64,000 nucleotides of DNA, from positions 174,374,923 through 174,438,922 of the forward strand of contig NC_050097.1 of NCBI RefSeq assembly GCF_902167145.1. Direction: 5' to 3'. The translations under genes were made by a program, and so were the position numbers. This DNA is from Zea mays (Eukaryota > Streptophyta > Magnoliopsida > Poales > Poaceae). Positions 31,731 to 58,562 of the stretch are shown one piece after another (the stretch's first letter is position 1; the number at the start of each line of letters is the position of its first letter). The notes beneath the pieces are model-generated. The model worked only from the letters and a program-made list of their open reading frames with translations, was not told where the DNA came from and did no database searches.

Positions 31731-31737
31731 GACAAAT

Positions 31738-34107: not shown

Positions 34108-34145
34108 CTCTTCGGGCGGTTAGTCCCTTTCTTGAAGAGAACGGC

Positions 34146-34157
34146 TCTGATACCAAT
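34146..34157 (-). promoter_or_regulatory. Element B primer-binding site (tRNA-iMet)
   Basis: Minus strand: TGGTATCAGAGC, two bases after the 5' LTR, complementary to the 3' end of plant initiator methionine tRNA. It primes minus-strand cDNA synthesis. Confidence 0.88.
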
Positions 34158-35438: not shown

Positions 35439-35443
35439 GTCTC

Positions 35444-36316: not shown

Positions 36317-36321
36317 CTTAG

Positions 36322-36796
36322 TGTTGGAACTTGCTCTCAGTTGCAAGGGGATCCAACAAGGGTGAACAGGGACGTTAACAGGGTTCTCACGCAAGATGGC
36401 AATAGCTCTGTTAATCTAGCCTCTCACGGGCACTGTGCGGGGGTATTTATAGGTGTCCGAGCGCCCAGCGTCTTGTGTTAAGGACGTATGTGCCCTCAGA
36501 CACCTAGGTTATCCCCAGAATATTCCCATAAAGCAGGGTTACAGACTGTAATTACAGGGATGCCTTTACAAATTAGGCCCGTAACACACAGCGGCCACGC
36601 AGGGCCCGTTACAGTGGGCCGGATCACACGTGGGCCTCCGAGCTGGACGAGGCCGCACGGTGGGATGACTTCGTCGCAGGCCTTCGTCTGATGTCGTATG
36701 GGGCGAAGGGTGTCCCTGCCCGTTTTATCTCCATTGGACCAACGACTGCAGCGAAGGCCTCGAGCGAAGGGTGGCGTCTTTGCCTTCGCCCCAACA
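36322..36796 (-). repeat. Element C 3' LTR
   Basis: On the minus strand starts TGTTGGGGCGAAGGC and ends GAGAGCAAGTTCCAACA. A purine tract (CTCGGAGGGCAAA, minus strand, 36797-36809) precedes it. A change of G to A near 36338 and C to T near 36485 distinguish it from the 5' copy. Confidence 0.94.
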
Positions 36797-36963
36797 TTTG
36801 CCCTCCGAGGGACCAGTTCGACAAAGTCATCTGGTGACGAAGACGTCGCTAGATGGCGGAGACGTTGCCCTCGCTCGAAGTGGTTCCGCGGGGGTTTTTG
36901 ACATGACCGTTGATTGACACCGTACTGTTGGACTGCGGGTTTCCCGAAGCGCCGCGCCCTGTG

Positions 36964-36971
36964 TATAAATA
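36964..36971 (+). promoter_or_regulatory. TATA box of element C antisense gene
   Basis: TATAAATA followed by GGGGCGGGGGTCGG, 168 bp inside the 3' LTR border and 163 bp upstream of the antisense ATG at 37134. A pyrimidine-rich leader (CTTCACTTTCCGCGCTCC) lies about 30-60 bp downstream, a normal place for transcription start. The element E homologue has the same arrangement. Confidence 0.65.
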
Positions 36972-37133
36972 GGGGCGGGGGTCGGCGCTTTTTGAACTTC
37001 ACTTTCCGCGCTCCGTGAAAACCCTAGCCGCCTTTTCCACCGTCTTGCTGCTCGTCTGCCCTCCTTGCTCTTGTTCGCCGGAGATCTGGCTCGAGTGAAG
37101 CAGACCGCCCGCCGCCGCCGACGGTACGTAGCG

Positions 37134-40100
37134 ATGTCGACCTCCTCTTCTTCTGCTACCGCTACGCCGCCGACCGATGCCTCGCCGCCGGCCGACGCCT
37201 CGTCTGAGGAGACGCTGAGTACTTTGGTGGCGGAGGAGTTGCGCGCCGGCGATACGGTGGATTTTGGTGTGTCGCGGATGTCGTCGGTCCGCGTGCAAGA
37301 TATGCAGCGACTGGGTTACTTTGGCGGCGGAGTTGCTCATGTCCCGGGGACGGAGGAAGTCCCCGAGCCAGAAGGCGAGTTGGTTGTGTTCGAGGCGTTC
37401 TTCACCGCCAGTCTCCGCCTGCCTGCGCACCGATTTGTTGGAGAAGTCCTGCGCAGATTTAACGTTCAGATACATCAGCTGACTCCGAATGCCGTGGTGG
37501 CTCTGTCGAAGTATGTTTGGGCGACGACTTCGTACGGCGGACAACCATCAGTCGAAGTCTTTGCGAAGTATTATTGCCTGCATTGGCAGAAGAGGATGAT
37601 TGGAGATGAAGTTGCCCAGTTTGGGTCCTGTACGTTTACGCCGAAGACCGGCAAGACCACGATGGAGGTAGTCGAGTTGGTTCCTTGCGCCCGCAACAAG
37701 TGGGGCAACTGGAATGAGTTTTGGTTTTACGTCGCGGAGGGTACCGTCGAAGACCATGAGGGGCTCCCCGTGTCCGAGATGTGTTCGCATTTTTACTCAG
37801 CATACCCGCCCTTTGAGGTGGCGAAGGAGGATGCGGACGAAGGGGCCCTTCGGTGCGCCGGCGGCCTGAGCAGTGGGCGCGATTTGGTTGAAGAATTTGT
37901 GGCGTACGGGGTATGGCCCCTGGTACATGGCTGGGCGTTGGGCGAAGTGTGCCCTCGCCAGATGCCTTCCCATGGTGGGAAGCTGGTGCGAAGTCCTGCC
38001 TTCGCACTAGATCTGCAAAGCCGCGATCCGGCCGCCTTTGTGCGTGAGGCGGAGGATGGGGCAGTGCGGATCGTTGGTCGGTACGTGCCGAGGACAGAGG
38101 GCTAGCGTAGCTGGGATATTCGCGGGTCGAATGACCGTTTGAACAGGGTTTTTGAATTGAATCGACTGCCGTACAATGGCTATCCCGGCCAAGACGATGT
38201 GGACCGCCGCGGGAAGAAACCGGTGGTAGAGACTGGAGACGACCCTGTGCCGGTGGCCGCCCCATCCTCTAAGAAGAGGAAACTAGGTACTGCTATGGGA
38301 GGACTTGGGGTTTCCGATGGTTTTGCTAGAGAATTGATGAGGACATGCGCGGCCCCGGGGGGAAGGATGTCTTCGCCCGAGCTCCGGGAGTCTTCGGCGC
38401 GGATGCTGAGGGTTACCGGGGGTTGGTGGCCTAGGAATGTTCCTATCCCCCGCGCGGCCGGCGAAGACTTTTTTACATCTCGCATGGTTCGTGAGTGGAA
38501 AGTGTTTCCTTACAGGCGGAATATTGCTGTTGTTGTGTCGGCAGTGATGGACAAGGATCGCCAGGGAGCTGCACAGAAGCGCCAGGCGGTTGTCAGGCTT
38601 CATGAAGCCAGGCCGAAGAGGCAGCGAGGGGCTGCAAAGGCTGCTGCCCCCGGCGGAGGCAAGCCGCCGCTGGCGGCGAAGTCGGCCATCCCTGCATCTA
38701 GCAAGGCACCGGAGGCTGCGGCTGGCGCCGGTGGTTCCAAGTCTGCGAAGACTGTGCCGCCGTCCGGCAGGGTGCCGGAGGTCGCGAAGGCGGCCCGAGG
38801 GCTGCCGTCGCCGGGCAAGCGCGTCGCCGACTTCGCCACCGATATTAGTGTGGACGACTATCTTGGTGGTAAGCCGTTGGCTCAATTTTTTTAATTCGTT
38901 GATACGTCGCAGGGTCGGTCGAAGGCCAACTTGTTATTGTTGCGCCTGCCGCAGCGACCACGGCGGCTGCCGTAGTGCCGAAGGCGAAGGGCGGTGGTCC
39001 TAGTGTCGGAGGCGAGATGCCGGCACTCGCTGCTGTCAGGGACGAGGCGGGCGCTGTGTCCCGCCAGCTGAAGGAGATGAAGGAGGCGCTAAGTCAGGTA
39101 CGTTGAGCTAGACTTGGGTTTTTTTTATCGGCTTTGTTGGGCCGCGGTCTTACGTGTGTTTTGCAGGCGGTTAACTTCGCAGACCGCGCGGCGTCGGGGG
39201 CCCTCACGGCAGTTGTGTCTGCCGAAGTCGAGAGACTTCGGACGCAACATGCCGACGCCGTCAGGGAAAAATCGGCCGCCGACAGTAAGTGCCGCAAGCT
39301 GGCGGACAAGGTGGCCGCGCTGGAGGGGGAGAAGACTGACCTCCGGCGCCGATTGGTGGAGGAGAGGAGGGAGGCCAATGAGGCCCTCGCTAAGGCGCAG
39401 GCTGCGCTGGCGGAGGCCAATTTGGCGCGGGCGGAGGGCAATCTTGCGAGGGAGCGCGCCGAGCAGTTGGGGGAGCGACTCAACGCTCTGCAGAGCCGTG
39501 TGGAGAGGACCGAGGCCGCGGCGCGCGCGGAGGCAGAGCGGACGCGCAAACAGCTTATGGATTCATACCATGAGCTGGGCGCGCAGACCGGTGACTTCGA
39601 AGTGCCGGACCGAGAGCCCGGACTTCGCTGCCTGGAGTGGGTGCAGGAGGAGTTGCAGGCACTCCCCACTATCATGGAGGGGTTTATGTCGTATGCCTCC
39701 CTGGTCACCTGCGAGGGGGCGATGAACGCGCTCTCTCGCGAAGGGTGCCGGCACTTTGAGGTCTTCGACCAAGCTGATGAGGATTTTGAACGAGATATCT
39801 ACAAGGTTGAGGACCCTATAGTGAAGGAATCCGCCGGAGCCATTTACGACCGGATGTGGGGTTCGCACGGTCGAGAGGTGGTCAGGGAGCGGGCCGAGAC
39901 GGCGAGGGCTCAGGTAACGTTTGGCTTTTGTTTGATGTTTGTTGGATGTGGGCTATGTGTGGGTTTGCTGAATTTGTGTGCTGTGTCTTAGGCGGCGCGT
40001 GGCGAGAGGGTGGATGATTTCGGGGCATTGAACAGCGCGCTGCCTGACCCGGAGTCGAACCTGGCGGAGGCCGTGTCCGAGGCCGCCCTGGAGCCGCCCC

Positions 40101-40830
40101 CGGAAACTGCCGAAGGCGCTCCTGATGCCCCCGCAGCCGCTGCGGCCGGTGGAGGCCCGCCCCCAGAGACCGATGAAGGCGCTCCTGATGCCCCCGCAGC
40201 CGCTGCACCGAGGGCTGAGGATCCTGCGACGGTGGCGGCGGAGGCAACAGCGGAGGCGACAGCGGAGGCTCCCGCAACGGCTGGGTCCTCGCAGGTGGCA
40301 TAGTGGGTGTGGGTAGTTAGGGAATTTTGGATATGTTGCTGAATTTTGGTTGCTGCGCAGGTTCAAGATTTTGGGCCTGCGCATGCAACCGCCACTACTG
40401 ATTTTTTGGCGGCTTCGACCGTGGATGATGGTAATGAATATGATGGGTCTGCGTCTGAGTTTTTTGATTTTGCAACTCTGGGAGCTCGGTTGAGTGGACT
40501 GAGGAGTCGTCGGAGGAGGACTTGGACTACTTTGCGGCCTTGGATGTGGCCGCGGCGGAAGCTTCATCGCACGCTGCGGACACAGAAGATGTGCCTGGTC
40601 CGAGTACCGGGCGCCGGCGGCGAAGGGCGGTTGCGAAGCGTAGAGTGAGTGGGGCGGAGGGAGGTCGGCTTCGTGTGAGTAGGGCTGGCCGGCAGGAACT
40701 ATTGTCTTTGCCAGCCGCCGTGAGTACAGGTGAAGGGGAATTGCGAAGTCTTTTTGCGGGTGAGGAGCTTAGGATAATGTTATTTAACTATAGGGAGATG
40801 GGAATTATTCCTAAGGTTGAGCCGATGTAG
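37134..40830 (+). pseudogene. Element C antisense gene: Transposase_28-like, five exons
   Basis: Exons 37134-38868, 38913-39097, 39167-39913, 39992-40294 and 40361-40830; introns are GT-AG and exons 3-5 join in phase 0. Intron 1 is only 44 bp and so less certain. The product (about 1,000 residues) has an Ala/Ser/Thr-rich start (MSTSSSSATATPP) and the 'putative gypsy type transposon' domain (residues about 40-300, ELVVFEAFFTASLRLPAHRF, NEFWFYVAEG, VWPLVHGWALGE). A basic Ala/Lys/Pro linker follows (ARPKRQRGAAKAAAPGGG), then a coiled coil (39200-39580), a conserved block (IYDRMWGSHGREVVRERAE), a duplicated EGAPDAPAAAA motif (40111-40215) and an acidic then basic tail (EESSEEDLDYFAAL, GRRRRRAVAKRR). 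One TAG (38103-38105) and one frameshift near 40490 are the only lesions, so it decayed recently. No catalytic motif was recognised; the linker suggests nuclear or nucleic-acid binding, an inference. Confidence 0.82.
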
Positions 40831-40964
40831 AGTGTGGTGCCCTCGCTTGTACATGTGTAAAGGCTTGTATGATGAGGTTGTGTGCCCCCGCACATTTGGC
40901 TATGCTTGCGAAGGCGTTATGTACTTGGTCAGGTGTATTTGTTATGCTGGACTGGTGCGCATAT

Positions 40965-41525
40965 AGTCGGTCTTGGCGCGGACCGTTTGGTGTGGTCGTT
41001 TTTGCTTTTGTTGTGCTAGTCCGGCTGCACCCTTAGGCGACTTCCGCACAGATAGTCTTCGTGGTAGACTTTGGTTTTTCGCACTTGTTGTGCTAGTCCG
41101 GCTGCACCCTTAGGCGACTTTTGCACGGATAGTCTTCGCGGTAGACTTCGGTTTTTCGCACTTGTTGTGCTAGTCCGGCTGCACCCTTAGGCGACTTCTG
41201 CACGGATAGTCTTCGCGGTAGACTTCGGTTTTTCGCACTTGTTGTGCTAGTCCGGCTGCACCCTTAGGCGACTTCTGCACGGATAGTCTTCGCGGTAGAC
41301 TTCGGTTTTTCGCACTTGTTGTGCTAGTCCGGCTGCACCCTTAGGCGACTTCTGCACGAATAGTCTTCGCGGTAGACTTCGGTTTTTCGCACTTGTTGTG
41401 CTAGTCCGGCTGCACCCTTAGGCGACTTCTGCACGGATAGTCTTCGCGGTAGACTTTGGTTTTTCGCACTTGTTGTGCTAGTCCGGCTGCACCCTTAGGC
41501 GACTTCTACACGGAGTTGTCGCACG
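40965..41525. repeat. 77-bp tandem repeats of element C
   Basis: Seven copies with an exact 77-bp period: the motif TTGTTGTGCTAGTCCGGCTG starts near 41007, 41084, 41161, 41238, 41315, 41392 and 41469. Units differ by single bases (TTTTGCACGG / TTCTGCACGG, CACGAATAG / CACGGATAG). The block lies between the 3' end of integrase and the 3' end of the antisense gene, so transcripts from both promoters converge here. Confidence 0.95.
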
Positions 41526-41744
41526 CGAGGGTGGCTAGCGCTGAGCCTCGCGGTGACTTCGTATTGGTCGAATGTCGAAGACCGTCGTCGCGGTCTTTTT
41601 TCGACGCATGTTTTTGCGGGGGATTTTTCACTTGTATATTACATGGCTCCGCCTCGTTAAAAACCTCACCCCCCGGGAGGAAAAGAGTGCGGGCTAGAAT
41701 AAAATTGTTTTTGCGAATTACAAGGGCGAATAGGCCCTGATGAG
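41526..41744. other. Element C spacer between integrase stop and tandem repeats
   Basis: Non-coding. The minus-strand integrase frame stops at 41745-41747. No further structure was seen. Confidence 0.5.
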
Positions 41745-44053
41745 TCAAACAAAAAATTTGCGGAGGTTGTCGATGTTCCAGGAGTGCTCCAGGTCATCGC
41801 CGCTTGGCGTTGTGAGCCTGTAAGCGCTGGGGGAAGCTTTCATCTTGACTATGAAGGGGCCCTCCCACCTGGGCTCCAGCTTGCCCCTGGACTCTGTCCG
41901 AGCTGTTCGGACGAGTACGAGGTCCCCTTCGTTGAATTCCCTTGGGACGACTGCATGGTCGCGCCATGCTTTTGTCTGGGCTTGGTATTTGTTCAGAGCT
42001 TGTAGGGCGAAGACTCGGTCTCCATCGATGAGATCCTTTGAAGTGGGCTCGTCCACGTCGGGGACGACTGAAGGGACTGTTCGCGGGGACCCATGTTTTA
42101 TTTCTTGTGGGGTCATGGCCTCCGATCCGTATAGAAGGCGGAAAGGAGTGAACTCGGTCGCCCTGCACTCAGTCGTGTTTAGTGCCCAGACCGCCTCGGG
42201 TAACAAATCGGCCCACTTGCCCTTTTTCGTCGAGGAGCATCTTTTTGACAGCTGTGAAGATTTTTCCATTGGCTCGTTCCACAACTCCGTTGGACTGCGG
42301 GTGATAGACTGAGGCGAAGGCAAGCTTGGTGCCGATGGAGAAGCAAAAATCCTTGAAGTCTTGGCTGTCAAACTGCTTGCCGTTGTCGACTGTTAGTTCG
42401 GACGGTACTCCGAAGCGGCAAACAATGTTTTGCCAAAAGAATTTTTGGGCAGTCTTTGATGTTATTGTGGAGACGGCCCTTGCCTCGATCCATTTGGTGA
42501 AGTATTCGACAGCGACGAAGGCGAACTTAAGGTTCCCCTGAGCCGTGGGTAGGGGCCCGACGATGTCTAGGCCCCAGCGCTGGAGAGGCCATGTGTGGGC
42601 GATCAGCTTTGTAAATTGCGAAGGGCTGCCTGATCGGGGGGAAAATTTCTGGCAGGCTTCGTAGGACCTTGTGACCCGATTTGCGGCGCAGATCATTGCG
42701 GGCCAGTAGAAACCTTGGCGGATCACCTTAGCAGCTAGGGCCCTTGGCCCTGCGTGAGAGCCGCAGGTACCACTGTGGACTTCGCGTAGGATCTGGACAC
42801 CTTCGGTTTCGGTGACGCATTTGAGCATTGGCTGACTGATCCCCTTCTTGTAGAGTTGGCCCTCAATCAGTGCGAAGTCCCGGCTTCGATGTTTGAGGCG
42901 CTTGGCCTCGTTGATGTCGGTTGGGTGGTAATACCCCTGTAGGAACAGAGTTATTGGTGCCCGCCAGTCTTCGGTCATGATAAGGTTGACTATTCGGTGG
43001 CCCTCGCTGTCATTGGTTATTTGGAGCCCTTCGGGGCTCCGGACGGCTGGTGTGCCGATGACGTGGTAGAACACGTCGGAGGGCAGGGACTCGCCACTGG
43101 CGGCAGCCTTGGCCAATGTGTCGGCCTCTTCATTCTTGGCCTGGTCCACATGCTGCAAAGTGAATCCCTTGAATTGTCTCTCGAGACTTCGGATGGCCGC
43201 GAGGTATTGCATGAGTGCGGGGTCCTTTGCTGCATAGTCTTTCTCGACCTGGCCGGCAACTACCTTGGAGTCTGTTTTGATGATGCAGGTGGTGACCCCA
43301 AGGGCCCTCAGCTTGCGGAGACCCAGGATGACTGCTTCGTATTCTGCTATGTTATTTGTGCATATGTCGGATTCCAGAGCGAAGCTGAGGCGAGCCGCAT
43401 ATTTGTGCTTGACTCCGGCTGGCGAGGTGATGACTGCCGCGGCGCCTGCTCCCGCATGGCACCATGCGCCGTCGCAGTGGATCGTCCAAACTTTTTCTGC
43501 GGACGAGTCCGACTGTGTTATTGGCCCAGTCCAGTCGACGACGAAGTCTACCAGGACTTGTGACTTGATGGCTGTCCTGGGCTCGAAATTGATGTGGTAG
43601 CCGGAGAGTTCGGCCGCCCACTTGGCAATCCTCACCGATGCTTCCGGGTTTCTGAACAATTCGCTGAGTCCCCTGTCTGAGGTGACCTGAACCTTGAATG
43701 CTTCGAAATAATGGCGCAGTTTGCGCGAAGACATGACGATTGCGTAGGCAATCTTCTCCAGCTCTGTCATGTTACATTTGGATGGCGTCAGCACTTCAGA
43801 GACGTAATAAATTGGGCACTGCCTGATCACGCCCTCAACTGTCTGCTCCTGCACCAGTGCCACGCTGACCGCATGCAGCGAAGCCGCAACATAGAGCAAC
43901 AGAGGTAGTGAAGGGTCGCGGCTTGTAAGGACTGCCAACTCCGACAGGTACTGTTTTAATGAGGCGTAGGCCGCCGCCTGCTCTGGTCCCCAAGCGAAGT
44001 CTTTTGCGCCACGGAGAGTTTTGAGGAAAGGGAGACTTCGCTCGGCGGATCTG
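41745..44053 (-). pseudogene. pol: Element C pol: RNase H, archaeal-type RNase H, integrase
   Basis: Continuation of the RT frame after removal of element D. In order: RT connection and remnant gypsy RNase H (TSRDPSLPLLLYVAASLHAV, TELEKIAYAIV); a second RNase H with D-E-D-D residues (IHCDGAWCHAGAGAAAVITS, NNIAEYEAVILGLRKL, IKTDSKVVAGQ, KNEEADTLAKAA), as known for the Tat lineage; the H2C2 zinc domain (HAGPRALAAKV...YEACQKF); and integrase D-D-E (RWGLDIVGPL, ELTVDNGKQFD, NGVVERANG). A frameshift near 42225, in the A/G run after LLDEK, moves the C-terminal integrase part (WALNTTECRATEFTPFRLLY, WEGPFIVKMK) into another frame. That frame stops at 41745. The lesion alone would disable integrase. 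Confidence 0.9.
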
Positions 44054-44058
44054 GAGAT

Positions 44059-45331
44059 TGTAGGATTACGGGGAGGCTACACTAGCGCAAAACAAAATTT
44101 TCAACCCCATAATACCAAGAACTACTGCGGTTATAGGTCATGGAATTACCACTAGACGCGCAGAGCAGCGGAAGACGTCTCGATGTAGACGAACGCGTCG
44201 AGCAGTGCCGTGCAGTCGCCGGCGTCCTTCACGTCCTCGCACGGTCCGTCCAAGTGCTCCAGATGCAGCACCTCCGAGGTATCCACACGTACAGGGAGGA
44301 AGCGCCGCGTACCGAACTGCTAGGTTCGCGACGGCGGCTTGGCGAGGGCGAGAGGTGGGCGGCGGCTGTTAGTTCGCTGGTGGCGAATTAGGTTATCCTT
44401 AACCGCGCCCCCGCCCCTCATTATATAGGCGTTATGGTGGGCTTCTGACGCCGAGGCCCATCATTAACCCTAAAGCCCAGTCTAATTTCGGATCTAATCT
44501 GAATTAGGCTTCCTTCCCCTTAAGTGTGTGACCCTATAGGTTCACGTACAAATAGACATAGCCCGAGTACTCTTACTTGGCCCAATAATTGACAGCGGCC
44601 TCTAGCAAGACATGTCAGCTCCTATGTGTACGTAAAGATCATATCGGACGAACCATTGCGACATTAAGTACATGCTGTTCTCTTTGTCTCACGATATTTG
44701 GTCTGGCTCTAAGCTGACCTCTCTTTCTCGATACTGTGAATTGGAATCCTTTCAATGGTTAACTCTTAACCCTAGCACGACCATGCATTTCTTGATCCAA
44801 TCACTCGAGGGGCCCAGAGATATCTCTCTCACAAAGAGAGGGACAAATTCCATCTTGACTGACCATGCCTCATAGCATGCTTCCTGACAAACCCAAAACT
44901 ACCTTTATAACTACCCAGTTACGGGATAGCGTTTGATAGTCCCTAAGTAAGTCAATTCACATCTTGAGAACATGCGACAATCTCAGGTCTAAGGATACAG
45001 TATTCATGTTGCAAGAAGAGAACTATATTACAATATCTCACGTTGGGTCGGTCCAGCCTCATGTCATACATGCGCCCACATTATTAATTTAACATCTCCA
45101 TGTTCATGACTTGTGAAATGTAGTCATCAACTAACACATGTGCTAGTCATCGACTCTGACTAGGGACATCATTTAGAATAACCATATAAGTAAAGAATCT
45201 CACAAACAATTCACATAATTGCTAATCAATACAAGGTGCCTTCCATGGATATTCAATTAAGCAATATATATATCATGGATACAAAGAAATATGCTCATCT
45301 CTATGATTATCTCTAGGGCATATTTCTAACA
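44059..45331 (-). repeat. Element D 3' LTR
   Basis: Plus-strand ends TGTAGGATTACGGG...GGCATATTTCTAACA. The minus-strand TATA-like TATATAAT is at 44420-44427. The purine tract GTGCAAGTGGGAGAC (minus strand) adjoins it at 45332-45346. Confidence 0.96.
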
Positions 45332-45351
45332 GTCTCCCACTTGCACTAGAG

Positions 45352-48300
45352 TTAATCTAGAAGATATCTAATACCCATAGATCTCACGTGTGCCTCATGC
45401 TTAGGTTGTGGAAGAGGTTTTGTCAAAGGATCAGCAACATTCAAATCCGTATGTATTTTGCATATCTTTATCTCACCCCGCCTAATGAATTCCCGTATGA
45501 GGTGAAACTTCCGCAGTACGTGTTTGTTTTTCTGGTGGTTCCTTGGCTCCTTAGCTTGCGCAATAGCCCCATTGTTGTCACAGTAGAGGTTCAATGGGCT
45601 AGATGCATTAGGAAACACACCAAGCTCGATGAGGAACTTCCTTATCCAAACACCTTCCTTCGCAGATTCAGAAGGTGCAATGTACTCGGCTTCTGTTGTA
45701 GAATCAGTCACAGTCTCCTGTTTGGAACTCTTCCAACTAACAGCACCACCATTTATTGTGAACACAAAACCTGATTGCGATTTTAACTCGTCTGGGTCAG
45801 TTTGGAAGCTAGCATCGGTGTAACCAGTTACAACGAGCTCCTCCTTACCCCCATATACCAGGAACATTTCTTTAGTCCTTCTTAAGTACTTAAGAATGCC
45901 TTTTACCGCTGTCCAGTGATCCTCACCTGGATCAGCCTGGTATCTACTCGTAGCACTTATAGCGTATGAAACATCTGGGCGTGTACTTATCATGGCATAC
46001 ATGATTGAACCAATTGCTGAGGCGTATGGTACCTTACACATGCGCTCCCGCTCATTAGCCGTTGCAGGACATTGCATCTGGCTAAGGTGTTTACCATGTG
46101 ACATAGGTATGAACCCTTTCTTGGACTGTTCCATGTTGAACCGTTTCAAAACCTTGTCAATGTACGTATCTTGACTTAATCCTATAAGCCTCTTCGACCT
46201 ATCTCTATAGATCCTTATGCCCAAAATATATGCTGCTTCCCCTAAGTCCTTCATAGAAAAACTCTTTTTCAGTGAAGCCTTGACGGACTCCAGCATAGGA
46301 ATGTCATTCCCAATCAATAATATGTCATCCACATATAAGATCAGAAATACAACAGCGCTCCCACTTTCCTTCTTGTAAACACAAGCTTCTTCTTCATTCT
46401 GATGAAAACCAAGCCCTTTGATCACTTCATCAAAATGAATGTTCCAACTCCGAGATGCTTGCTTCAACCCATAAATGGATTTCTGAAGTTTGCATATCTT
46501 TCCAGCATTGATCGGATCGACAAAACCCTCGGGCTGTATCATATACACGTCCTCATCTAGGTTTCCATTAAGGAAAGCTGTTTTGACATCCATCTGCCAA
46601 ATCTCATAATCGAAATATGCGGCAATAGCTAGAATGATCCGAATAGATTTAAGCATCGCTACTGGCGAGAATGTCTCGTCATAGTCAACTCCTTGAACTT
46701 GTCGAAAACCCTTTGCAACAAGTCGAGCCTTATAGATGTGAACATTTCCATCCATGTCTTTCTTCTTCTTATAGATCCATTTGCATTCTATAGGTCTAAC
46801 ACCATCAGGCGGGTCAACCAAGTTCCAAACTTGATTTTCTCCCATGGAATCTATCTCGGATCTCATGGCGACATGCCATTTCTCGGAATCTGGGTCCATC
46901 ATCGCTTCTGAATATGTTGCAGGTTCGTCGTTGTCTAACAACAACACTTCCCCATTGCCCAACAATAGCACTTCTCCTCGTGCCTCGCGAAGCCTTGCTG
47001 ACCTTCGTGGTTGTGGTGGTGATTCTCTTGCCATAGACGTCTCAACTTGTTCTGCTACATTAGCATCACTTGTTGAATCTTGTCCCACTGGCTCATCCTG
47101 AACTTCTTCAAGATACACCTTTTGTTTACTTTTCTCTCTTTTGAGAAACTCTTTCTCTAAGAACACACCGTTCCGGGCGACAAACACTTTGCCCTCTGAC
47201 CGGTGGTAAAAGTAATATCCTAAAGTTTCCTTTGGATATCCCACGAACATGCACTTGTCCGATTTTGGAGTGAGTTTATCCGACTGTAGTCGCTTGACGT
47301 AAACCTCACAACCCCAAATCTTCAGAAAAGACAAGCTGAGAGTCTTCCCAGTCCACATCTCATATGGTGTCTTAACTACGGACTTAGACGGTACCCTATT
47401 TAGTGTGAAAGCTGCTGTTTCTAGAGCGTATCCCCAAAACGACAAAGGTAGGTCCGACTGGCTCATCATTGATCGAACCATATCCAATAAAGTCCGATTA
47501 CGTCGCTCAGACACGCCATTCCTCTGAGGCGTTCCAGGCGGCATAAGCTGTGGAACAATTCCACAACTCTTTAGATGATTGCTAAACTCATGACTCAAAT
47601 ATTCACCACCACGATCTGATCGCAGTGCTTTAATTTTCTTGCCACGCTGATTTTCTACTTCATTCTGAAACTCTTTGAACTTTTCTAAGGATTCAGACTT
47701 GTGTTTCATTAAGTAGACATACCCATATCTACTAAAATCATCAGTGAAGGTTATGAAGTATTGGAATCCTCCCCTAGCTGTCGTACTCATTGGTCCGCAC
47801 ACATCAGTATGTATGAGTTCCAATAAATCTAACGTCCTCTCCGGTAAACCCGTGAAGGGCGCCTTGGTCATCTTACCAAGTAAGCAAGCTTCACATGTCT
47901 CGTATGATTCAAAATCAAACGAAGTTAAAAGCCCATCAGAATGAAGCTTCTTCATGCGATTCTCACTTATATGACCCAAACGACAGTGCCACATGTAGGT
48001 AGGACTTAAATCATTAGGCCGAGGCCTTTTAGCACTAATATTACAGATAGGTGTATCATCAAGATTTAAAATGAATAACCCATTCATAATGGATGCAAAA
48101 GCCACAAACATGCCATTCTTAGAGATCACACAACCATTGTTTTCACTCGCAAATGAATAACCATCCTTCATCAAACATGAAGGAGACATAATGTTTCGAC
48201 TCATACTAGGAACTAGATAACAATTATTTAACTCCAAAATAAATCCTGATGGGAGGTGGAGTTGCATCGTCCCGACGGTCAACGCAGCAACTCTTGCATT

Positions 48301-49317
48301 ATTGCCTACCCGGAAATCAACTTCTCCTCTTTTCACGCTTCTACTTCTTATCATTCCCTGCATCGAATTGCAAATATGGGCAACCGATCCGGTATCAAAT
48401 ACCCAAGAATTAATATAAGAATCAGCAAGAAAAATTTCTGTAATGTGAATAGCAAGTGTACCTGCTGCGGCTGTACCCTTACCGCCGCGATCCTTAATAG
48501 AGGCCAAGTACTGCTTGCAATTCCTTTTCCAGTGACCAAGTTCTTTGCAATAAAAGCACTCTGCATCTGCAGCTGGTCCAGCCTTGGGCTTTTGATTTGG
48601 CTTGGATACTGTATCCTTTGCCTTGCCCTTCTTCTTTTGAGACTTACCCTTCTTCTTAAAGTTGGGTTTGTTTTGGACCGCCATCACATGGCCGCTGCTG
48701 CCAGCGCTTTTCTTTATGTCCCCTTCTGCTGTTTTCAGCATGCCACACAGTTCATTGAGGCCCCTCTCCGCCCCATGCATATGGTAGTTCGTGATGAAGT
48801 TTCCATAGCTGGGTGGAAGAGATGCCAAAATAAAGTCAGTGGCCAACTCTTGGCTTATTGGGAAGCCTAGCTTCTCCAACCTCTGACTGTAACCAACCAT
48901 TTTGATTACGTGTGGCCCAACTGCTGCGCCTTCTGCTAGCTTGCATTCCAGAAAGGCTTTGGACACATTGAACCTTTCAGTCCTAGCCTGAGTCTGGAAC
49001 ATATCCTTGAGCGCCACGATCATATCGTGCACCTCATGGTTTGTCTCAAACTGCATCTGGAGCTCAGGCTCCATGCAAGCAAGCATTAGGCAACTCACTT
49101 CAAGATTAGCATCCATTGCTTTCTTGTAAGCGGTTTTAGCTGCAGCAGTTGCATTTTCACCAGGATCCTCTGGCAGTGGGGTGTCTAGAACGTCTTCCTT
49201 TTTTTCAGCCCTGAGAACAATTCTCAGGTTACAGATCCAATCCGTATAGTTTGTTCCATTTAACTTATCCTTTTCAAGAATTGATCGCAAAGTAAATGTT
49301 GGTGTGCTAGGTGCCAT
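45352..49317 (-). CDS. gag-pol: Element D Gag-Pol polyprotein (copia), uninterrupted
   Basis: 1,321 codons without a stop. Domains in order: capsid (about 1-210, LNGTNYTDWICNLRIVLRAE, LASLPPSYGNFI); a Lys-rich linker; a CCHC knuckle (CFYCKELGHWKRNC, about 255); protease (WVFDTGSVAHICNSM, about 310); an HHCC domain (HCRLGHISENRM...CEACLLGK); integrase (LIHTDVCGPM, ALRSDRGGEY, RRNRTLLDMV); RT (DETFSPVAMLKS, MDVKTAFLNG, LYVDDILLIGND); and RNase H (YTDASFQTD, STTEAEYIAPSES, CDNNGAIAQ). The end is SMGIRYLLD. All catalytic residues are in place. Gag and Pol share one frame, so Gag excess must come from another mechanism. The stop is only about 20 bp from the 3' LTR, a very compact design. Confidence 0.96.
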   Translation of the reverse strand: MAPSTPTFTLRSILEKDKLNGTNYTDWICNLRIVLRAEKKEDVLDTPLPEDPGENATAAAKTAYKKAMDANLEVSCLMLACMEPELQMQFETNHEVHDMIVALKDMFQTQARTERFNVSKAFLECKLAEGAAVGPHVIKMVGYSQRLEKLGFPISQELATDFILASLPPSYGNFITNYHMHGAERGLNELCGMLKTAEGDIKKSAGSSGHVMAVQNKPNFKKKGKSQKKKGKAKDTVSKPNQKPKAGPAADAECFYCKELGHWKRNCKQYLASIKDRGGKGTAAAGTLAIHITEIFLADSYINSWVFDTGSVAHICNSMQGMIRSRSVKRGEVDFRVGNNARVAALTVGTMQLHLPSGFILELNNCYLVPSMSRNIMSPSCLMKDGYSFASENNGCVISKNGMFVAFASIMNGLFILNLDDTPICNISAKRPRPNDLSPTYMWHCRLGHISENRMKKLHSDGLLTSFDFESYETCEACLLGKMTKAPFTGLPERTLDLLELIHTDVCGPMSTTARGGFQYFITFTDDFSRYGYVYLMKHKSESLEKFKEFQNEVENQRGKKIKALRSDRGGEYLSHEFSNHLKSCGIVPQLMPPGTPQRNGVSERRNRTLLDMVRSMMSQSDLPLSFWGYALETAAFTLNRVPSKSVVKTPYEMWTGKTLSLSFLKIWGCEVYVKRLQSDKLTPKSDKCMFVGYPKETLGYYFYHRSEGKVFVARNGVFLEKEFLKREKSKQKVYLEEVQDEPVGQDSTSDANVAEQVETSMARESPPQPRRSARLREARGEVLLLGNGEVLLLDNDEPATYSEAMMDPDSEKWHVAMRSEIDSMGENQVWNLVDPPDGVRPIECKWIYKKKKDMDGNVHIYKARLVAKGFRQVQGVDYDETFSPVAMLKSIRIILAIAAYFDYEIWQMDVKTAFLNGNLDEDVYMIQPEGFVDPINAGKICKLQKSIYGLKQASRSWNIHFDEVIKGLGFHQNEEEACVYKKESGSAVVFLILYVDDILLIGNDIPMLESVKASLKKSFSMKDLGEAAYILGIRIYRDRSKRLIGLSQDTYIDKVLKRFNMEQSKKGFIPMSHGKHLSQMQCPATANERERMCKVPYASAIGSIMYAMISTRPDVSYAISATSRYQADPGEDHWTAVKGILKYLRRTKEMFLVYGGKEELVVTGYTDASFQTDPDELKSQSGFVFTINGGAVSWKSSKQETVTDSTTEAEYIAPSESAKEGVWIRKFLIELGVFPNASSPLNLYCDNNGAIAQAKEPRNHQKNKHVLRKFHLIREFIRRGEIKICKIHTDLNVADPLTKPLPQPKHEAHVRSMGIRYLLD

Positions 49318-50565
49318 TTATCTACAACAAAATAATGCAAAATACTAAGACAAAATATCCATGACAGAGTAAATCATATTAAACATTTAATAGTCTACTC
49401 CCACTAAAATCAATATCCCTCGATTGATACTTAGTGATTCAGAACCCACAACTAACAAGTCTACTAGTGAGCTTTAGCATCACCGCTAGAAGACAAGGTA
49501 GATCGGTAAGCAACTCCTTGCTAATCATATCATATATATGACTCCTGTTGTTGGGTGACATCTCTATGTCTCGGCTCCCAACCTTATGCCTCAAAGTCCT
49601 TAACCATTAAGCTGACTTTGTTTAAGTTAACCAACCCTTTCTGCAGTTCGTATCCGATACAAACCTATCTAGTCAAGGAAAACTGGTGGCACCCTAATTT
49701 CATAGACCCACCACCAATTGTACAAGACTTATGATAGTGCAAGGTTTGGAGAGGCATTAAAGCTTAAACATTTATGAGGGATCGTCCTACTTATAACATC
49801 GCACGCAAGGAATTATATGCAATATAAACAAGTAGAACAATAAGAATGGCATTCACACAACAGTTGTGATTCGGTATGGCTTGTTTTCACATGGTGATCC
49901 CCATCTCCAAAAATCTGTTCATCACGATGATCTCCATCTCCATGATATAGGTATGCCATCCTCCAGGTGATGAGTCCTTCAAGACCTATCTAACGTATGC
50001 TGGTAAACAAATTACATATACGCTTTGGATCATCACATGTTGACACGCAGGTCATTACATTAAATTTGGACAATACATGTGGCTCCAGCCGTATTGCCCT
50101 GGTCACGACACGCAGGTCATGAATAACTTATTAACATGCATCATATACACATAATAGCCATACCGATCACATGTCCTGCAAAAACAGGTTAGACAAACAC
50201 GTTTCTATACGTTCGCCACTACAGCAGAAACCTCACAGGATTCCATGCATCATATGTATGGAAATTCCACTGGAAATCTCATGCGGTTGATCAAATCAAC
50301 CCAAATCCGAGACTTTCGACCCGAAGAAGATTACACTCATGACGTTGATCTGTTACGTCAATCTACTACTTGTGTACGCTGTTAGCCTCGAAGGTGATTC
50401 CAGCCGGTAGGGGCAAGTCACGCATACAACAGAGAAGGACGAACTGATCTCTCCAGTCATATCCGATGTAATCTACTTCAACCCTATCTTACCAATTGAT
50501 CTAATCAAACCGTGCATCAAGTAGATCCATCTCATGAACCTAGATCCAGACCTAAAACTACGCAG
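49318..50565 (-). other. Element D 5' leader
   Basis: A 1.25-kb untranslated stretch between the primer-binding site and the gag-pol start. No reading frame of note was seen. Leaders of this kind hold packaging and dimerisation signals in copia elements, which I cannot locate from sequence alone. Confidence 0.6.
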
Positions 50566-50584
50566 AACCTGGCTCTGATACCAC
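50566..50584 (-). promoter_or_regulatory. Element D primer-binding site (tRNA-iMet)
   Basis: Minus strand: GTGGTATCAGAGCCAGGTT directly after the 5' LTR, an extended match to the complement of initiator Met tRNA. Confidence 0.9.
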
Positions 50585-51857
50585 TGTAGGATTACGGGGA
50601 GGCTACACTAGCGCAAAACAAAATTTTCAACCCCATAATACCAAGAACTACTGCGGTTATAGGTCATGGAATTACCACTAGACGCGCAGAGCAGCGGAAG
50701 ACGTCTCGATGTAGACGAACGCGTCGAGCAGTGCCGTGCAGTCGCCGGCGTCCTTCACGTCCTCGCACGGTCCGTCCAAGTGCTCCAGATGCAGCACCTC
50801 CGAGGTATCCACACGTACAGGGAGGAAGCGCCGCGTACCGAACTGCTAGGTTCGCGACGGCGGCTTGGCGAGGGCGAGAGGTGGGCGGCGGCTGTTAGTT
50901 CGCTGGTGGCGAATTAGGTTATCCTTAACCGCGCCCCCGCCCCTCATTATATAGGCGTTATGGTGGGCTTCTGACGCCGAGGCCCATCATTAACCCTAAA
51001 GCCCAGTCTAATTTCGGATCTAATCCGAATTAGGCTTCCTTCCCCTTAAGTGTGTGACCCTATAGGTTCACGTACAAATAGACATAGCCCGAGTACTCTT
51101 ACTTGGCCCAATAATTGACAGCGGCCTCTAGCAAGACATGTCAGCTCCTATGTGTACGTAAAGATCATATCAGACGAACCATTGCGACATTAAGTACATG
51201 TTGTTCCCTTTGTCTCACGATATTTGGTCTGGCTCTAAGCTGACCTCTCTTTCTCGATACTGTGAATTGGAATCCTTTCAATGGTTAACTCTTAACCCTA
51301 GCACGGCCATGCATTTCTTGATCCAATCACTCGAGGGGCCCAGAGATATCTCTCTCACAAAGAGAGGGACAAATTCCATCTTGACTGACCATGCCTCATA
51401 GCATGCTTCCTGACAAACCCAAAACTACCTTTATAACTACCCAGTTACGGGATAGCGTTTGATAGTCCCTAAGTAAGTCAATTCACATCTTGAGAACATG
51501 CGACAATCTCAGGTCTAAGGATACAGTATTCATGTTGCAAGAAGAGAACTATATTACAATATCTCACGTTGGGTCGGTCCAGCCTCATGTCATACATGCG
51601 CCCACATTATTAATTTAACATCTCCATGTTCATGACTTGTGAAATGTAGTCATCAACTAACACATGTGCTAGTCATCGACTCTGACTAGGGACATCATTT
51701 AGAATAACCATATAAGTAAAGAATCTCACAAACAATTCACATAATTGCTAATCAATACAAGGTGCCTTCCATGGATATTCAATTAAGCAATATATATATC
51801 ATGGATACAAAGAAATATGCTCATCTCTATGATTATCTCTAGGGCATATTTCTAACA
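50585..51857 (-). repeat. Element D 5' LTR
   Basis: Identical to 44059-45331 apart from about five transitions, for example GATCTAATCCG / GATCTAATCTG near 51025 and CATATCAGACG / CATATCGGACG near 51170. The TATA-like TATATAAT is at 50946-50953 (minus strand), about 900 bp from the LTR start. Confidence 0.96.
50946..50953 (-). promoter_or_regulatory. TATA box of element D 5' LTR
   Basis: TATATAAT on the minus strand in CGCCTATATAATGAGGGGCG, a TATA box between GC-rich sequences, which is the usual core-promoter layout. Confidence 0.6.
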
Positions 51858-51862
51858 GAGAT

Positions 51863-53257
51863 GAATCTGTTGAGGGCGACCAATCTCCCCGTCAAGCGCT
51901 GGACGTCTCTGGCGGACTGCGGGGGCCTCATGTTTATGATGGCTTGAATTTTGGTTGGGTTGGCCTCGATGCCGCGGTGTGATACCAGGTAGCCCAATAT
52001 TTTGCCTTGGCGAACGCCGAAGACGCACTTTTCTGGGTTTAGGCGGAGTTGGGCGTCTCGCATGTTCGCGAATGTCTCGGCGAGGTCAGTGAGATGGTCC
52101 GCCTTGCTCTTACTGGCGACGACGATGTCGTCCACATATGTGAATATATTTCTGCCAACTTGCCCGTCGAGCACTGTCTTGGTAAGCCTGGAGAAGGTGG
52201 ACCCGACGTTCTTGAGTCCCTTCGGCATTCTGATGAAGCAATATGTGCCGAAGGGTGTTATAAAGCTGGTGCTAGCCTTGTCTTCCTCCTTCATGTATAT
52301 CTGGTGGTACCCGGAGAAGCAGTCGAGGAGTGACATGACTTCGCATCCGGCCGCGCTATCGACTATTTTGTCGATCCGCGGCAACGGGAAGTTGTCCTTT
52401 GGGCAGGCCTTATTGAGGCTGGTGAAGTCGATGCACATTCGCCACTTCCCGCTCTTTTTCTGCACCATCACAACATTGGAGAGCCACGTGGGGTAAGCCA
52501 CCGGCTCGATGAATTTGGCTTCCAGGAGGCGGTGCACTTCTGCCTTGGCGGCCTCTGTCTTCTCGTCGGACATCTTGCGAAGCCGCTGTTTTTTCGGCCT
52601 CACCGAAGGGTCGATTCCCAAGCTGTGCTCGATTATGGATCGGCTGACCCCGACCAGGTCGAGGGCTGACCAGGCGAAGACATCTTTGTTCTTGGACAGG
52701 CAGCAGAGGAGCTTCTCCTCTTCATGCGAAGTGAGGTCTTTGCTGATAGTGACTGTCTGCTTGGGCGTGGCCTGGTCGAGGGGGACAGTCTTGGTCCCGT
52801 CGTTGCTCTGCAGCTGTGCCTTGTCGTGCTGTTTATCGGTTGGGCTGGCGGGCGCGGGGACCTCGCGCTGGGCCGTGAGGCAGTGCACGTTTCTCTGACC
52901 GGGTACGAAGTCCCGCTCTATGTTGCGCGCAGTCTGTTGATTGCTGTAGACCGTAATAACGCCTAACGGACATGGTATCTTCATACATAGGTACAGTCCG
53001 TGAATGGCTGCTTCGAACTTATTGATGGAGCCCCGGCCCATGATGGCATTGTATGGATATACCATATCCACAATATCAAAGGTTACTTGCTCACTTCGGG
53101 CATTGGGTGCTACACCGAAGGAGAGAGGCAGCTCTATTTTGCCGACAGGAAAGGTGCCCTTGCCGCCGAAGCCATACAACGGGTTGTCCGAAGGCTTGAG
53201 CAAGCTGTGGCTTATGCCCATGCGATCGAAGGCATGGAGGAAGATGATGTCCGCCTA
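51863..53257 (-). pseudogene. pol: Element C protease-RT part of pol
   Basis: The protease active site VLVDNGS (about 53256-53280) is followed at once by an amber codon (53255-53257) where a Ser codon is expected. Beyond it the frame is open to element D: protease remainder (ADIIFLHAFDRMGIS), then RT (KFIEPVAYPTWLSNVVMVQK, RMCIDFTSLNKACPKD, LLDCFSGYHQI, TYVDDIVVASKS, EKCVFGVRQGKILGYLVS). The catalytic YVDD is intact. The frame continues after D at 44053 with no shift. Upstream, the gag frame and the protease frame differ by one nucleotide, with the shift near 53335, so gag and pol were originally one ORF. Confidence 0.88.
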
Positions 53258-53271
53258 ACTGCCATTGTCGA

Positions 53272-55209
53272 CTAGGACTTTGTGCAGGTCCCAGCCTGCC
53301 ACGCTGCAATTGATAACCATGGCGTCGCAGTGGGGGCGCTGCGCAGGTCGACGTCTCGTGCGTCGAAGGTTAGCGGTATGTGGGACCACTTTGTCTGCAC
53401 AACTGGGCCAGTGACGGCGACATGGTTGATGCTGCGGTAGTGGTCCCGCTTCTGCCGCTTTGTGTCGAAGTCAGTGCTGGACCCCCCAGTTATCATGTGA
53501 ATGACTCCGCGATACGGCTGATCGGCGAAGTCTTCCTGCTTCGGGGCGTGGGGGATGTTTTGATGTTGCTGGTGTGGTGGTGGGGGTGGGGGAGGTACGA
53601 TTTGTACTTCCTGATGGTGTTGGTAAGCGTGGTGCGGTGGATGCAGGGCGGGGGCGTGGATATATGGTGGAGGGGGTTGCTGGTATGTGTGTGCGACAAC
53701 TCTGGGGTTGTCGGCTGGCTGCGCCCGTGCCATCCTGTCTCTGGTGGCCTTCGTTTCTGGGCAGTCTTTGGTTTGGTGGGCGCAGTCTTCGCCATGGAAG
53801 AGGCAGTAGAATCGGCGCGGCGGCTGCGCACGCCCCCGACCCCTACCGCGAGTTCCATTTCCGCGGCCCTGGGGGGGATATTCCTGGCGACGAGGGGCGT
53901 CAGCAGCGGGGTGCTGGTTGGCGATGTTGTGCACTTGCTGTTGATTGCGGCCGTCTCGACCGGAGTCTGGCTGCGGAGTCCTCGTCCACGTGCGGCTGGA
54001 CTGTGGAGCATCTTTGGGCTTCCTTTGGGACTCAACCTTGCGCTGGTGGAGCTCTTCGGATTTTGCGTATTTTTCAAACAGCTGATATAATTCCTGGAGG
54101 TTCTTTGGCGGATCTCTGATGCAGTGGCTATAGAGGACGCCGACGCAAAGGCCACTGATAGCGTAGTGGATAGCGATCTGGTCATCGACTGAGGGCAGCT
54201 GTGACTTGAGTGTTAAAAATTTGCGGTAATACTCCCGCAGAGTCTCCTTTTCCAGCTGCTTGCAGAGTGAGAGTTCGGCCAAGGCGTCGGTGTCTGGGCG
54301 GTACCCTTGGAAGTTGAGCAGGAACTTGTCCCGGAGGCTTCTCCAGGAATCAATGGACATCGGAGGCAACCTGGTGAACCAGGTGAGAGCTGGGTCTTCG
54401 AGGGCGATGATGAAAGACTTGGCCATTGTGGCATCGTCCCCTCCGGAAGATGCAACGGCGACCTGATAACTCATTATGTATTGTGCTGGGTCGGTGCTGC
54501 CGTTGTACTTGGGATAGGTCCCTGCCCGGAAGTTAGCGGGCCAAGGCATCACTTGCAGGTGTGGCGCCAGGGGACTTCGCTCGTCAAGGTAGTTGACCCC
54601 TTGGAATGGCGCGGCGTGCGGGAAGGTGTGGTCGCGCTGGGGGAAACGTGGGTCTTCCGGTTGTGCGCGCTGGTGCAGGGGTGGCCCATGCTGCAGGCCG
54701 AGGTGGCCTTCGCGCGTGTCTTCCAGTTGTGCGCGCTGCTGCAGGGGTGGCCCGTGCTGCAGGCCAAGGTGGCCTTTGCGCTGCATCAGCGCGATCTCCC
54801 GCTCGAGGTCCTGGGCCTTCTGCTCTTCGTCACGAATCATTTGCCACACTTTGGCTAGTGCGGACACGCGTTAGCGCTTGGCCTCCAGTATCTCTTTCTG
54901 CCTCTGGAGATTGCGGTTCTTGAGGCGCAGGGTGCGCAGCTGTAGTTGTTCTTCCGCTGAGACGCCGAGGACTTCACCGTCCTCGGTGAGGTCCGCGCCC
55001 TCCAGTGTGGCGAAGCCTGGGGGTGGCTGCGATTGTCCTTCAGGGCCGCAGGTGCGGAGAGTGTCGTCTTCGCAGGTGCGGAGAACGTCGTCTTCAGTGG
55101 CCTCTTGGTGGGTGGATTGGGTGAGGGCGAGGGCCTTGCCCTTTCTTGCAGCAAGTAGTGCTGCCTTCGCAGCCTCGTCAGCCTTCGGGTTAGCTTTCTT
55201 GGGTGCCAT
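53272..55209 (-). pseudogene. gag: Element C Gag
   Basis: The ATG at 55207-55209 (MAPKKANPKADEAAK) starts 40 bp after the 5' LTR. One TAA (54871-54873, in the middle of a coiled coil, ILEAKR|RVSALAKV) breaks the frame, otherwise open to 53272. Features: a charged coiled-coil N-terminus; an internal duplication of about 66 bp (GHLGLQHGPPL(Q/H)QRAQ, 54660-54790); the Retrotrans_gag core (YPKYNGSTDPAQYIMSYQV, WFTRLPPMSIDSWRSLRDKF, EYYRKFLTLKSQLPSV); an Arg/Gly/Pro-rich basic region; a single zinc knuckle-like CLFHGEDCAHQTKDC; and a Pro/His-rich stretch. The last codons before 53272 are out-of-frame protease sequence caused by the shift near 53335. Confidence 0.88.
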
Positions 55210-55224
55210 CGCGGGTGGTTTTCT

Positions 55225-55249
55225 CGTAGCACGAACGGTGGGCGCCAAA
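55225..55249 (-). promoter_or_regulatory. Element C primer-binding site region
   Basis: Minus strand, right after the 5' LTR: TTTGGCGCCCACCGTTCGTG. TGGCGCC-type primer sites are usual in Ty3/gypsy elements. I cannot name the tRNA with confidence. Confidence 0.6.
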
Positions 55250-55724: not shown

Positions 55725-55729
55725 CTTAG

Positions 55730-58505: not shown

Positions 58506-58548
58506 GATCCATCTCTTCGGGCGGTTAGTCCCTTAGATGAAGAGTACG

Positions 58549-58562
58549 ACTCTGATACCAAT
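58549..58562 (-). promoter_or_regulatory. Element A primer-binding site (tRNA-iMet)
   Basis: Minus strand ATTGGTATCAGAG next to the 5' LTR, as in element B. Confidence 0.85.

What the first reader, a model, noticed from the sequence alone, without database searches (positions are those of the whole stretch)
36964..40830. Spliced antisense gene with its own promoter inside a gypsy retrotransposon
On the strand opposite to gag-pol, element C carries a TATA box, a leader, an ATG and five exons whose GT-AG junctions restore the frame at exons 2-3, 3-4 and 4-5 in phase 0. A gene with introns survives on the antisense strand because the sense genomic RNA is not spliced at those sites. The product combines a Transposase_28-like domain, a basic linker, coiled coils and an acidic tail. 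Extra antisense ORFs are known in Tat-lineage elements, but their function is unresolved and this copy shows an almost complete gene model.
Basis: partly seen in the sequence, partly recalled or inferred. Interest (0 to 1): 0.85.

Follow-up and report, generated by a model that had tools for sequence, protein, structure and literature searches.

The report
Spliced antisense gene in maize retrotransposon
A jumping element in what looks like the maize genome carries, on the strand opposite to its own genes, a five-exon gene that natural selection has maintained in the family although this copy is broken; the gene type is known, its intron structure may not be.

Summary
The gene model is real and of a known kind: the antisense TRP28 (Transposase_28, PF04195) accessory gene of Retand/Tat-lineage Ty3/gypsy elements. 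The window copy is young (LTRs 98.7% identical) but broken. I aligned it with 29 other copies from the same genome. Seven of eight splice dinucleotides are kept in 29 of 29, the eighth in 28. Exon indels are mostly multiples of three; introns 1 and 2 vary freely in length. dN/dS is 0.20-0.40 in the gene frame against 0.78-1.61 in the other + strand frames. Variants shared between copies are more constrained than private ones (0.31 vs 0.56, Fisher p 3e-8), so selection acted while the family spread. A second family in this genome, 22-25% identical in the TRP28 part, also has a multi-exon antisense gene. No intronless copy and no spliced sequence turned up; splicing is inferred from DNA alone. 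Antisense TRP28 genes, and an own promoter and nuclear product for maize Grande gene23, are published. The two papers on these genes that I read in part do not use the word intron; the primary Grande paper was not held.

The parts
36322..55724 (-). element C, Retand/Tat-type Ty3/gypsy LTR retrotransposon (gag-pol on - strand), interrupted by a nested copia element
   Evidence: LTR pair 475 bp, 98.7% identical, TSD CTTAG/CTTAG; gag, RT, RH, second RNase H-like and integrase domains
36322..36796 (-). 3' LTR
55250..55724 (-). 5' LTR
36964..36969 (+). TATAAA of the putative antisense promoter, 167 bp inside the LTR boundary
   Evidence: present in 30 of 30 copies; promoter activity not tested
36996..37133 (+). 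leader, open in the gene frame but not clearly constrained
   Evidence: dN/dS 0.75, bootstrap 0.40-1.20
37134..38868 (+). exon 1 (ATG; TRP28 domain; basic linker); in this copy interrupted by a stop at 38103-38105
   Evidence: PF04195 at aa 84-149, E 5.1e-14; dN/dS 0.30 in gene frame
38869..38912 (+). intron 1 (44 nt; 44-47 nt in 30 copies), phase 1
   Evidence: GT and AG kept in 29 of 29; length not a multiple of three in 22 of 30
38913..39097 (+). exon 2
   Evidence: dN/dS 0.40 in gene frame, no stop in 30 of 30 copies
39098..39166 (+). intron 2 (69 nt; 60-79 nt in 30 copies), phase 0
   Evidence: donor 28 of 29, acceptor 29 of 29
39167..39913 (+). exon 3 (coiled coil, then the most constrained part of the exon)
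   Evidence: dN/dS 0.29, last third 0.09; helix 2-141
39914..39991 (+). intron 3 (78 nt in 28 of 30 copies), phase 0
   Evidence: GT and AG kept in 29 of 29
39992..40294 (+). exon 4 (Ala/Glu/Pro-rich, acidic)
   Evidence: dN/dS 0.38; indels multiples of three except in 4 copies
40295..40360 (+). intron 4 (66 nt in 30 of 30), phase 0; if retained, an in-frame stop follows at 40301-40303
   Evidence: GT, AG kept in 29 of 29; stop at 40301 kept in 29 of 29 as TAG (26) or TAA (3)
40361..40830 (+). exon 5 (stop at 40828-40830); frame broken in this copy
   Evidence: 3' part dN/dS 0.20; TAG at 40828 in 29 of 29 others
41008..41514 (.). 77-bp tandem array, 6.6 units, between the antisense gene and pol
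44059..51857 (-). nested Ty1/copia element that splits pol of element C
   Evidence: LTRs 99.6% identical, 1321-aa ORF with RVT_2; TSD GAGAT read from the flanks (the script's own TSD line was off by one base)

Best explanation
The stretch is the antisense accessory gene of a Retand/Tat-lineage Ty3/gypsy element (genome by size and number of large contigs maize; inferred). In family members without breaks an RNA starting near the TATA box just inside the 3' LTR runs against the genomic RNA, is spliced at four short introns and gives a protein of roughly 1,100-1,150 residues: TRP28 domain, basic linker, about 140-residue coiled coil, conserved segment, acidic and basic C-terminal part. Shown here: coding selection in all five exons and in the propagating lineage, frame-compatible conserved GT-AG boundaries, and a multi-exon gene of similar layout in a second family. 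Inferred: transcription, splicing and function. The most likely function (about 40%) is a nuclear, oligomeric, DNA-binding regulator acting in trans on its own family's transcription or integration, as proposed in print for these genes and by analogy with HTLV-1 HBZ. The window copy is a relic that cannot make the full protein.
For: PF04195 hit; 29 other copies with the same exon boundaries; dN/dS E1 0.30, E2 0.40, E3 0.29, E4 0.38, E5 3' part 0.20, other + frames 0.78-1.61; codon-bootstrap upper limits 0.38, 0.68, 0.41, 0.52, 0.32; shared variants 0.31 vs private 0.56, p 3e-8, stop variants 7 shared vs 29 private; introns T-rich (36-47%) between exons with 11-26% T; second family L044-L046 with three GT-AG introns placed alike in its three copies; no intronless copy among the candidates scored. 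Literature: 97% of Retand clusters carry an antisense TRP28 ORF (PMC11963269); Grande gene23 has its own promoter and a nuclear product (PMC7264820).
Against: No RNA evidence. None of 330 proteins listed by three searches (best 120 of 1315, 1273 and 414 hits) shows a removed intron; readable junctions are 44 (3-4), 7 (1-2) and 1 (2-3), all with extra residues between the exons, as expected of calls made on DNA. Introns 3 and 4 have lengths that are multiples of three, so the length argument does not apply to them, and intron 3 is open in frame in those 44 proteins. Read as if coding, the introns give 1.04, 0.40, 1.65 and 0.40 (introns 1-4, few sites). Intron 1 (44-47 nt) is shorter than the 56 bp quoted as an experimentally validated minimum in PMC6310983, which also cites about 30 bp in humans. 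Constraint is weak in the last 117 nt of exon 1 (0.70; another frame 0.64) and absent in the first 87 nt of exon 5 (1.41, few sites). AlphaFold of the exon-1 part failed (pLDDT 33), so DNA binding has no structural support here. 24 of 30 copies have at least one stop in E1-E4.
Confidence: 0.78

Rival explanations
1. The antisense RNA, not the protein, is what matters: it pairs with genomic RNA and yields siRNA or interferes with packaging; the reading frame is a leftover.
For: Antisense RNA is proposed as a possible regulator in PMC7264820; 24 of 30 copies have stops in E1-E4.
Against: Frame-specific dN/dS of 0.20-0.40 over about 1,100 codons and stronger constraint in shared than private variants point to translation; frame is kept across introns 1 and 2 of free length.
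Confidence: 0.1
2. Separate ORFs rather than one spliced gene: a TRP28 protein ending in or after exon 1, or after exon 4, and independent small proteins from later exons.
For: Exon 4 is followed by a stop (40301) kept in 29 of 29 copies; intron 1 is very short; intron 3 is open in frame in many related proteins; the survey PMC11963269 lists separate antisense ORFs.
Against: All five exons are constrained, are bounded by kept splice-like sites, and introns 1 and 2 vary in length without regard to frame; the second family shows a similar pattern. Whether exons 2-5 have conserved start codons of their own was not tested.
Confidence: 0.12
3. One gene with regulated splicing: intron 4 retained gives a short form ending at 40303, intron 4 removed gives the long form.
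For: Stop kept as TAG (26) or TAA (3) in 29 of 29; donor GTGGCA is weak by eye; the lowest-diversity 75-nt window of the whole stretch spans intron 4/exon 5 (0.0157 vs mean 0.058).
Against: No RNA; three changes are too few to prove selection on the stop.
Confidence: 0.3
4. Captured host gene (transduction) rather than an old element gene.
For: Several spliceosomal introns are typical of host genes.
Against: Present in the 30 copies examined (which were chosen by this stretch) and, by PMC11963269, in 97% of Retand clusters, with no similarity to TRP28 found outside TEs. Host genes were not searched separately here.
Confidence: 0.05

Closest known systems
Antisense TRP28 (PF04195) ORFs of Retand elements (PMC11963269)
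   Same: Position between pol and 3' LTR, antisense, TRP28 domain, long 3' internal region, tandem array nearby
   Different: That survey lists ORFs; the word intron occurs 0 times in it. Here five exons under constraint
maize Grande gene23 (Gomez-Orte 2013, as described in PMC7264820; primary paper not held)
   Same: Antisense accessory gene before the 3' LTR, own promoter upstream of the gene, maize; nuclear product there
   Different: Element size and LTR differ (Grande 13.769 kb, LTR 631 in PMC3091746; here about 11.6 kb without the nested insert, LTR 475); whether gene23 has introns I could not read
maize Shadowspawn family (PMC3091746 table 1, passage)
   Same: Total size 11.526 kb and LTR 469 bp, close to 11.6 kb and 475 bp
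   Different: Size match only; no sequence compared
HTLV-1 HBZ (mentioned in PMC11963269; that it is spliced is recalled)
   Same: Works-like: antisense gene, nuclear regulatory product
   Different: No homology claimed; the HTLV antisense promoter lies inside the 3' LTR (PMC7264820), this TATA is outside the LTR
Ogre elements (PMC6317226, passages)
   Same: Tat clade; intron within an LTR element

Membership tests
Retand subclade of Tat (Ty3/gypsy) | additional RNase H domain between RH and INT (PMC6317226: Ogre and Retand) | tested here: met
   Pfam order RT_RNaseH 54-160, RVT_3 202-325, Integrase_H2C2 427-480, rve 497-593 in ORF 42172-44076; equating RVT_3 with the additional RNase H is my inference
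Retand subclade of Tat (Ty3/gypsy) | antisense TRP28 ORF between pol and 3' LTR | tested here: met
Retand subclade of Tat (Ty3/gypsy) | POL-3'LTR region 2,933-6,566 bp; internal region 7,380-12,869; LTR 315-1,194 (PMC11963269) | tested here: met
   about 5.37 kb from 36797 to 42168; internal about 10.65 kb without the nested element; LTR 475
Retand subclade of Tat (Ty3/gypsy) | RT groups with Retand references in a tree | not tested
   reference RT sequences were not fetched; the features above do not by themselves exclude Ogre except for TRP28 versus plant mobile domain
Transposase_28 (PF04195) | score over Pfam gathering cut-off | tested here: met
   52.7 bits vs 26.2
Grande gene23 type gene | antisense transcription from own promoter | not testable with these tools
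   only a TATAAA present in 30 of 30 copies
Grande gene23 type gene | nuclear protein | not testable with these tools
   basic segments only, seen by eye
Shadowspawn family | sequence identity to the named family | not tested
   size match only

The most novel reading that the evidence does not exclude
Retand elements as a group carry a full intron-containing, splicing-regulated gene on their antisense strand: the published single-exon antisense ORFs are fragments of it. Its introns (one only 44-47 nt) make it expressible only from the antisense RNA, and a conserved block at intron 4/exon 5 switches between two C-termini, so the element tells replication RNA from regulator mRNA by strand and splicing.
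Probability: 0.25. Interest if true: 0.65.

Novelty: new variant of a known kind. Interest (0 to 1): 0.45.

Why it matters
Antisense genes are a hallmark of Retand elements, which are abundant in maize and some other plants, but their function is open. The published survey that I read counts open reading frames and so would see only pieces of a gene like this. A multi-exon model with constraint in every exon says what full-length product to express, tag and knock out, and which splice junctions to look for in existing long-read RNA data. It would also be a clean natural case in which introns separate an antisense mRNA from the genomic RNA of the same element.

Tried and rejected
Rejected: that exon 1 simply ends at 38105. 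The frame continues unchanged after the stop and 28 of 29 other copies have no stop at that codon. Not supported: translation of the leader from an upstream start (dN/dS 0.75 in the gene frame; another frame gives 0.42).

Led nowhere: viral contig scan for exon 1, 10 pattern matches and no relative; AlphaFold of the exon-1 part, pLDDT 33, so no fold search was run; PDB sequence search with the exon-1 alignment, 0 matches; Pfam for the rest of exon 1 and for exon 4, 0 families; exon 3 gave only two Pfam matches below their cut-offs. Search for intronless copies with E2-E3 and E3-E4 junction probes: 40 of 1318 and 40 of 1701 candidates scored, longest match 51 and 60 of 96 nt, none spans the junction whole.

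Rows left out: of 46 loci, 30 (L009-L038, the window's own copy included) entered the family alignment; they are the 30 for which one search gave loci, out of 38 scored and 5468 first-look candidates, so constraint may be overstated by picking well-preserved copies. L001-L008 were used for pairwise comparison only, L039-L042 not at all, L043 not beyond its ORF list. In L044-L046 the script did not find the exon-4 start of L044, whose acceptor I then read by eye; the intron-1 donor of L045 was also read by eye. No dN/dS is given for that exon 4. Some synonymous distances in that family are saturated (up to 2.8). dN/dS columns are anchored on the window; insertions relative to it were ignored. 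Three of the exon-1 stretches were given out of frame and are read from their in-frame column.
Full report
What is there. Element C is a Ty3/gypsy LTR retrotransposon on the - strand, 36322-55724, with 475-bp LTRs 98.7% identical (6 differences, JC distance 0.0127) and TSD CTTAG on both sides. With the grass rate of 1.3e-8 per site per year (recalled) it inserted roughly half a million years ago. It is split by a younger copia element at 44059-51857 (LTRs 99.6%; TSD GAGAT read from the flanks). gag (53275-54870), RT (51842-53254), and RH, a second RNase H-like domain and integrase (42172-44076) were found by Pfam. The window lies in a 2.18-Gb genome of 655 contigs, ten of them large; I infer maize, no tool names it.

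The antisense gene. Between the 3' LTR and pol, on the + strand, lie TATAAA (36964), ATG (37134) and five exons. The frame restores at every junction: phase 1 at intron 1, phase 0 at introns 2-4 (read, boundaries checked). Exon 1 holds a Transposase_28 domain (PF04195, 52.7 bits against a cut-off of 26.2). Exon 3 is predicted as one long helix, residues 2-141 (113 of 249 residues at pLDDT 90 or more), followed by helices of low confidence.

Is it more than chance. I aligned the 3.9-kb stretch of the window with the 29 other copies for which one search gave loci (38 scored of 5468 candidates). Donors 1, 3, 4 and all four acceptors are kept in 29 of 29 other copies and donor 2 in 28. That alone is weak, because 105 of 250 GT and 149 of 274 AG in the stretch are equally conserved. 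Stronger: intron 1 is 44, 45, 46 or 47 nt (13, 8, 5, 4 copies) and intron 2 takes 15 lengths from 60 to 79 nt, while exon 2 never changes length and exons 1, 3, 4 and 5 change mostly by multiples of three (exceptions: 1 copy in exon 3, 4 in exon 4, and in exon 5 one other copy and the window). Introns 3 and 4 hardly vary (78 nt in 28 of 30, 66 nt in 30 of 30) and are multiples of three, so they give no such evidence. dN/dS in the gene frame is 0.30, 0.40, 0.29, 0.38 and 0.20 (exon 5, 3' part) against 0.78-1.61 in the other + frames. On the - strand, tested for E1-E4, one frame per exon is low (0.39-0.52); it is the mirror frame in which third positions coincide, and the other eight values are 0.80-1.50. 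The last 117 nt of exon 1 (0.70) and the first 87 nt of exon 5 (1.41, few sites) are not clearly constrained. Stops: 40 in the gene frame of E1-E4 in 30 copies versus 695 and 1186 in the other + frames; 6 of 30 copies have none; 26 of the 40 are single C-to-T or G-to-A changes relative to the commonest codon. Variants seen in two or more copies show a nonsynonymous-plus-stop ratio of 0.31, those in one copy 0.56, Fisher p 3e-8; stop variants are 7 shared and 29 private. So the gene was under selection while the family was multiplying.

The window copy is broken: a stop after 323 residues of exon 1 and a private one-base frameshift in exon 5. One other copy (L010) has a stop at the same exon-1 codon, although the closest relative of the window copy is L011, so recurrent mutation is as likely as descent. 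Copies without a visible break in exons, splice sites and start exist among the 30 (follows from the table).

Generality. A PF04195 search of this genome gave 150 matches, all over the cut-off, from 39000 candidates of which 150 were scored. Three copies of a different family (L044-L046; 21.7-25.2% identical to the window over 119-123 residues of the TRP28 part; 73-77% identical in DNA to each other over their longest matches) show the TRP28 exon followed by three GT-AG introns placed alike in the three copies. Lengths are 75 nt (two measured), 82-83 nt (three) and 70-80 nt (two); phases 0, 1, 0; dN/dS 0.22-0.41 in the short exon and 0.08-0.24 in the coiled-coil exon, with some synonymous distances saturated. 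The exon pattern resembles but does not equal that of the window family.

Was it ever spliced. No RNA data are at hand. Three protein searches found 1315, 1273 and 414 relatives and listed the best 120 each, 330 distinct. Every junction readable in these still holds the intron (44 at 3-4, 7 at 1-2, 1 at 2-3), as expected from DNA. No intronless genomic copy was found among the candidates scored, so copying back of the spliced antisense RNA was not detected, in line with the idea that antisense introns persist because the genomic RNA cannot splice them (CT...AC on that strand). Intron 1 is the doubtful junction: 44-47 nt lies below the 56 bp quoted as an experimentally validated minimum in PMC6310983, which also cites about 30 bp in humans (passages). 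For it speak that exon 1 is conserved up to the donor in related proteins of 63-92% identity while the stretch between varies from 13 to 22 residues.

Known. PMC11963269 (parts 1-3 of 5 and passages; [quoted passage not shown] PMC7264820 (parts 1-2 of 3 and passages): Grande gene23, own promoter, nuclear product; the authors ask that antisense and spliced transcripts be looked for. PMC6317226 (passages): Ogre and Retand domain order; Transposase_28 in 23% of Retand elements; sense-strand intron in Ogre. PMC3091746 (passages): family sizes, and Shadowspawn ESTs frequent in cultured cells. The word intron occurs 0 times in PMC11963269 (listing) and PMC7264820. Searches that might have shown a description of introns in such genes; I saw none in the listings, but the library lacks the primary Grande paper and the Steinbauerova survey. 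So the gene kind is known; the conserved multi-exon structure may be new.

Mechanism. Best guess: antisense Pol II transcript from the internal TATA, spliced, exported, translated; the protein returns to the nucleus, oligomerises by its coiled coil and binds DNA through TRP28, regulating the family in trans. Steps shown: coding constraint, conserved boundaries, domain content. All other steps are inferred. Most stops look post-insertional (private to one copy), so they say little about whether the protein acts in cis or in trans.

Noticed in passing
40323-40397: Lowest-diversity 75-nt window of the whole aligned stretch (0.0157 vs mean 0.058 in 30 copies; next lowest 0.0209) spans intron 4 and the start of exon 5; reason unknown.
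   Followed up: partly
38869-38912: Candidate ultrashort plant intron, 44-47 nt in 30 copies; 7 related proteins carry 13-22 residues between the two exons there.
   Followed up: partly
44059-51857: Young Ty1/copia element with 99.6% identical 1.27-kb LTRs, TSD GAGAT and a 1321-aa open frame, nested in pol of element C.
   Followed up: partly
35438-36321 and 55725-59442: Element C sits inside another retroelement: its flanks align to 30441-31324 and to 31320-35051 of a neighbouring related copy.
   Followed up: no
26452-27736 and 34158-35443; 1157-1832 and 14183-14858; 22408-23745 and 58562-59894: Further direct repeat pairs of LTR-like size (96.4%, 97.2%, 92.0% identical), a sign of heavy nesting.
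   Followed up: no
41008-41514: 77-bp tandem array, 6.6 units, 97% matches, between the ends of the convergent antisense gene and pol.
   Followed up: no
L010: This copy has a stop at the same exon-1 codon as the window copy although the window's closest relative is L011.
   Followed up: partly
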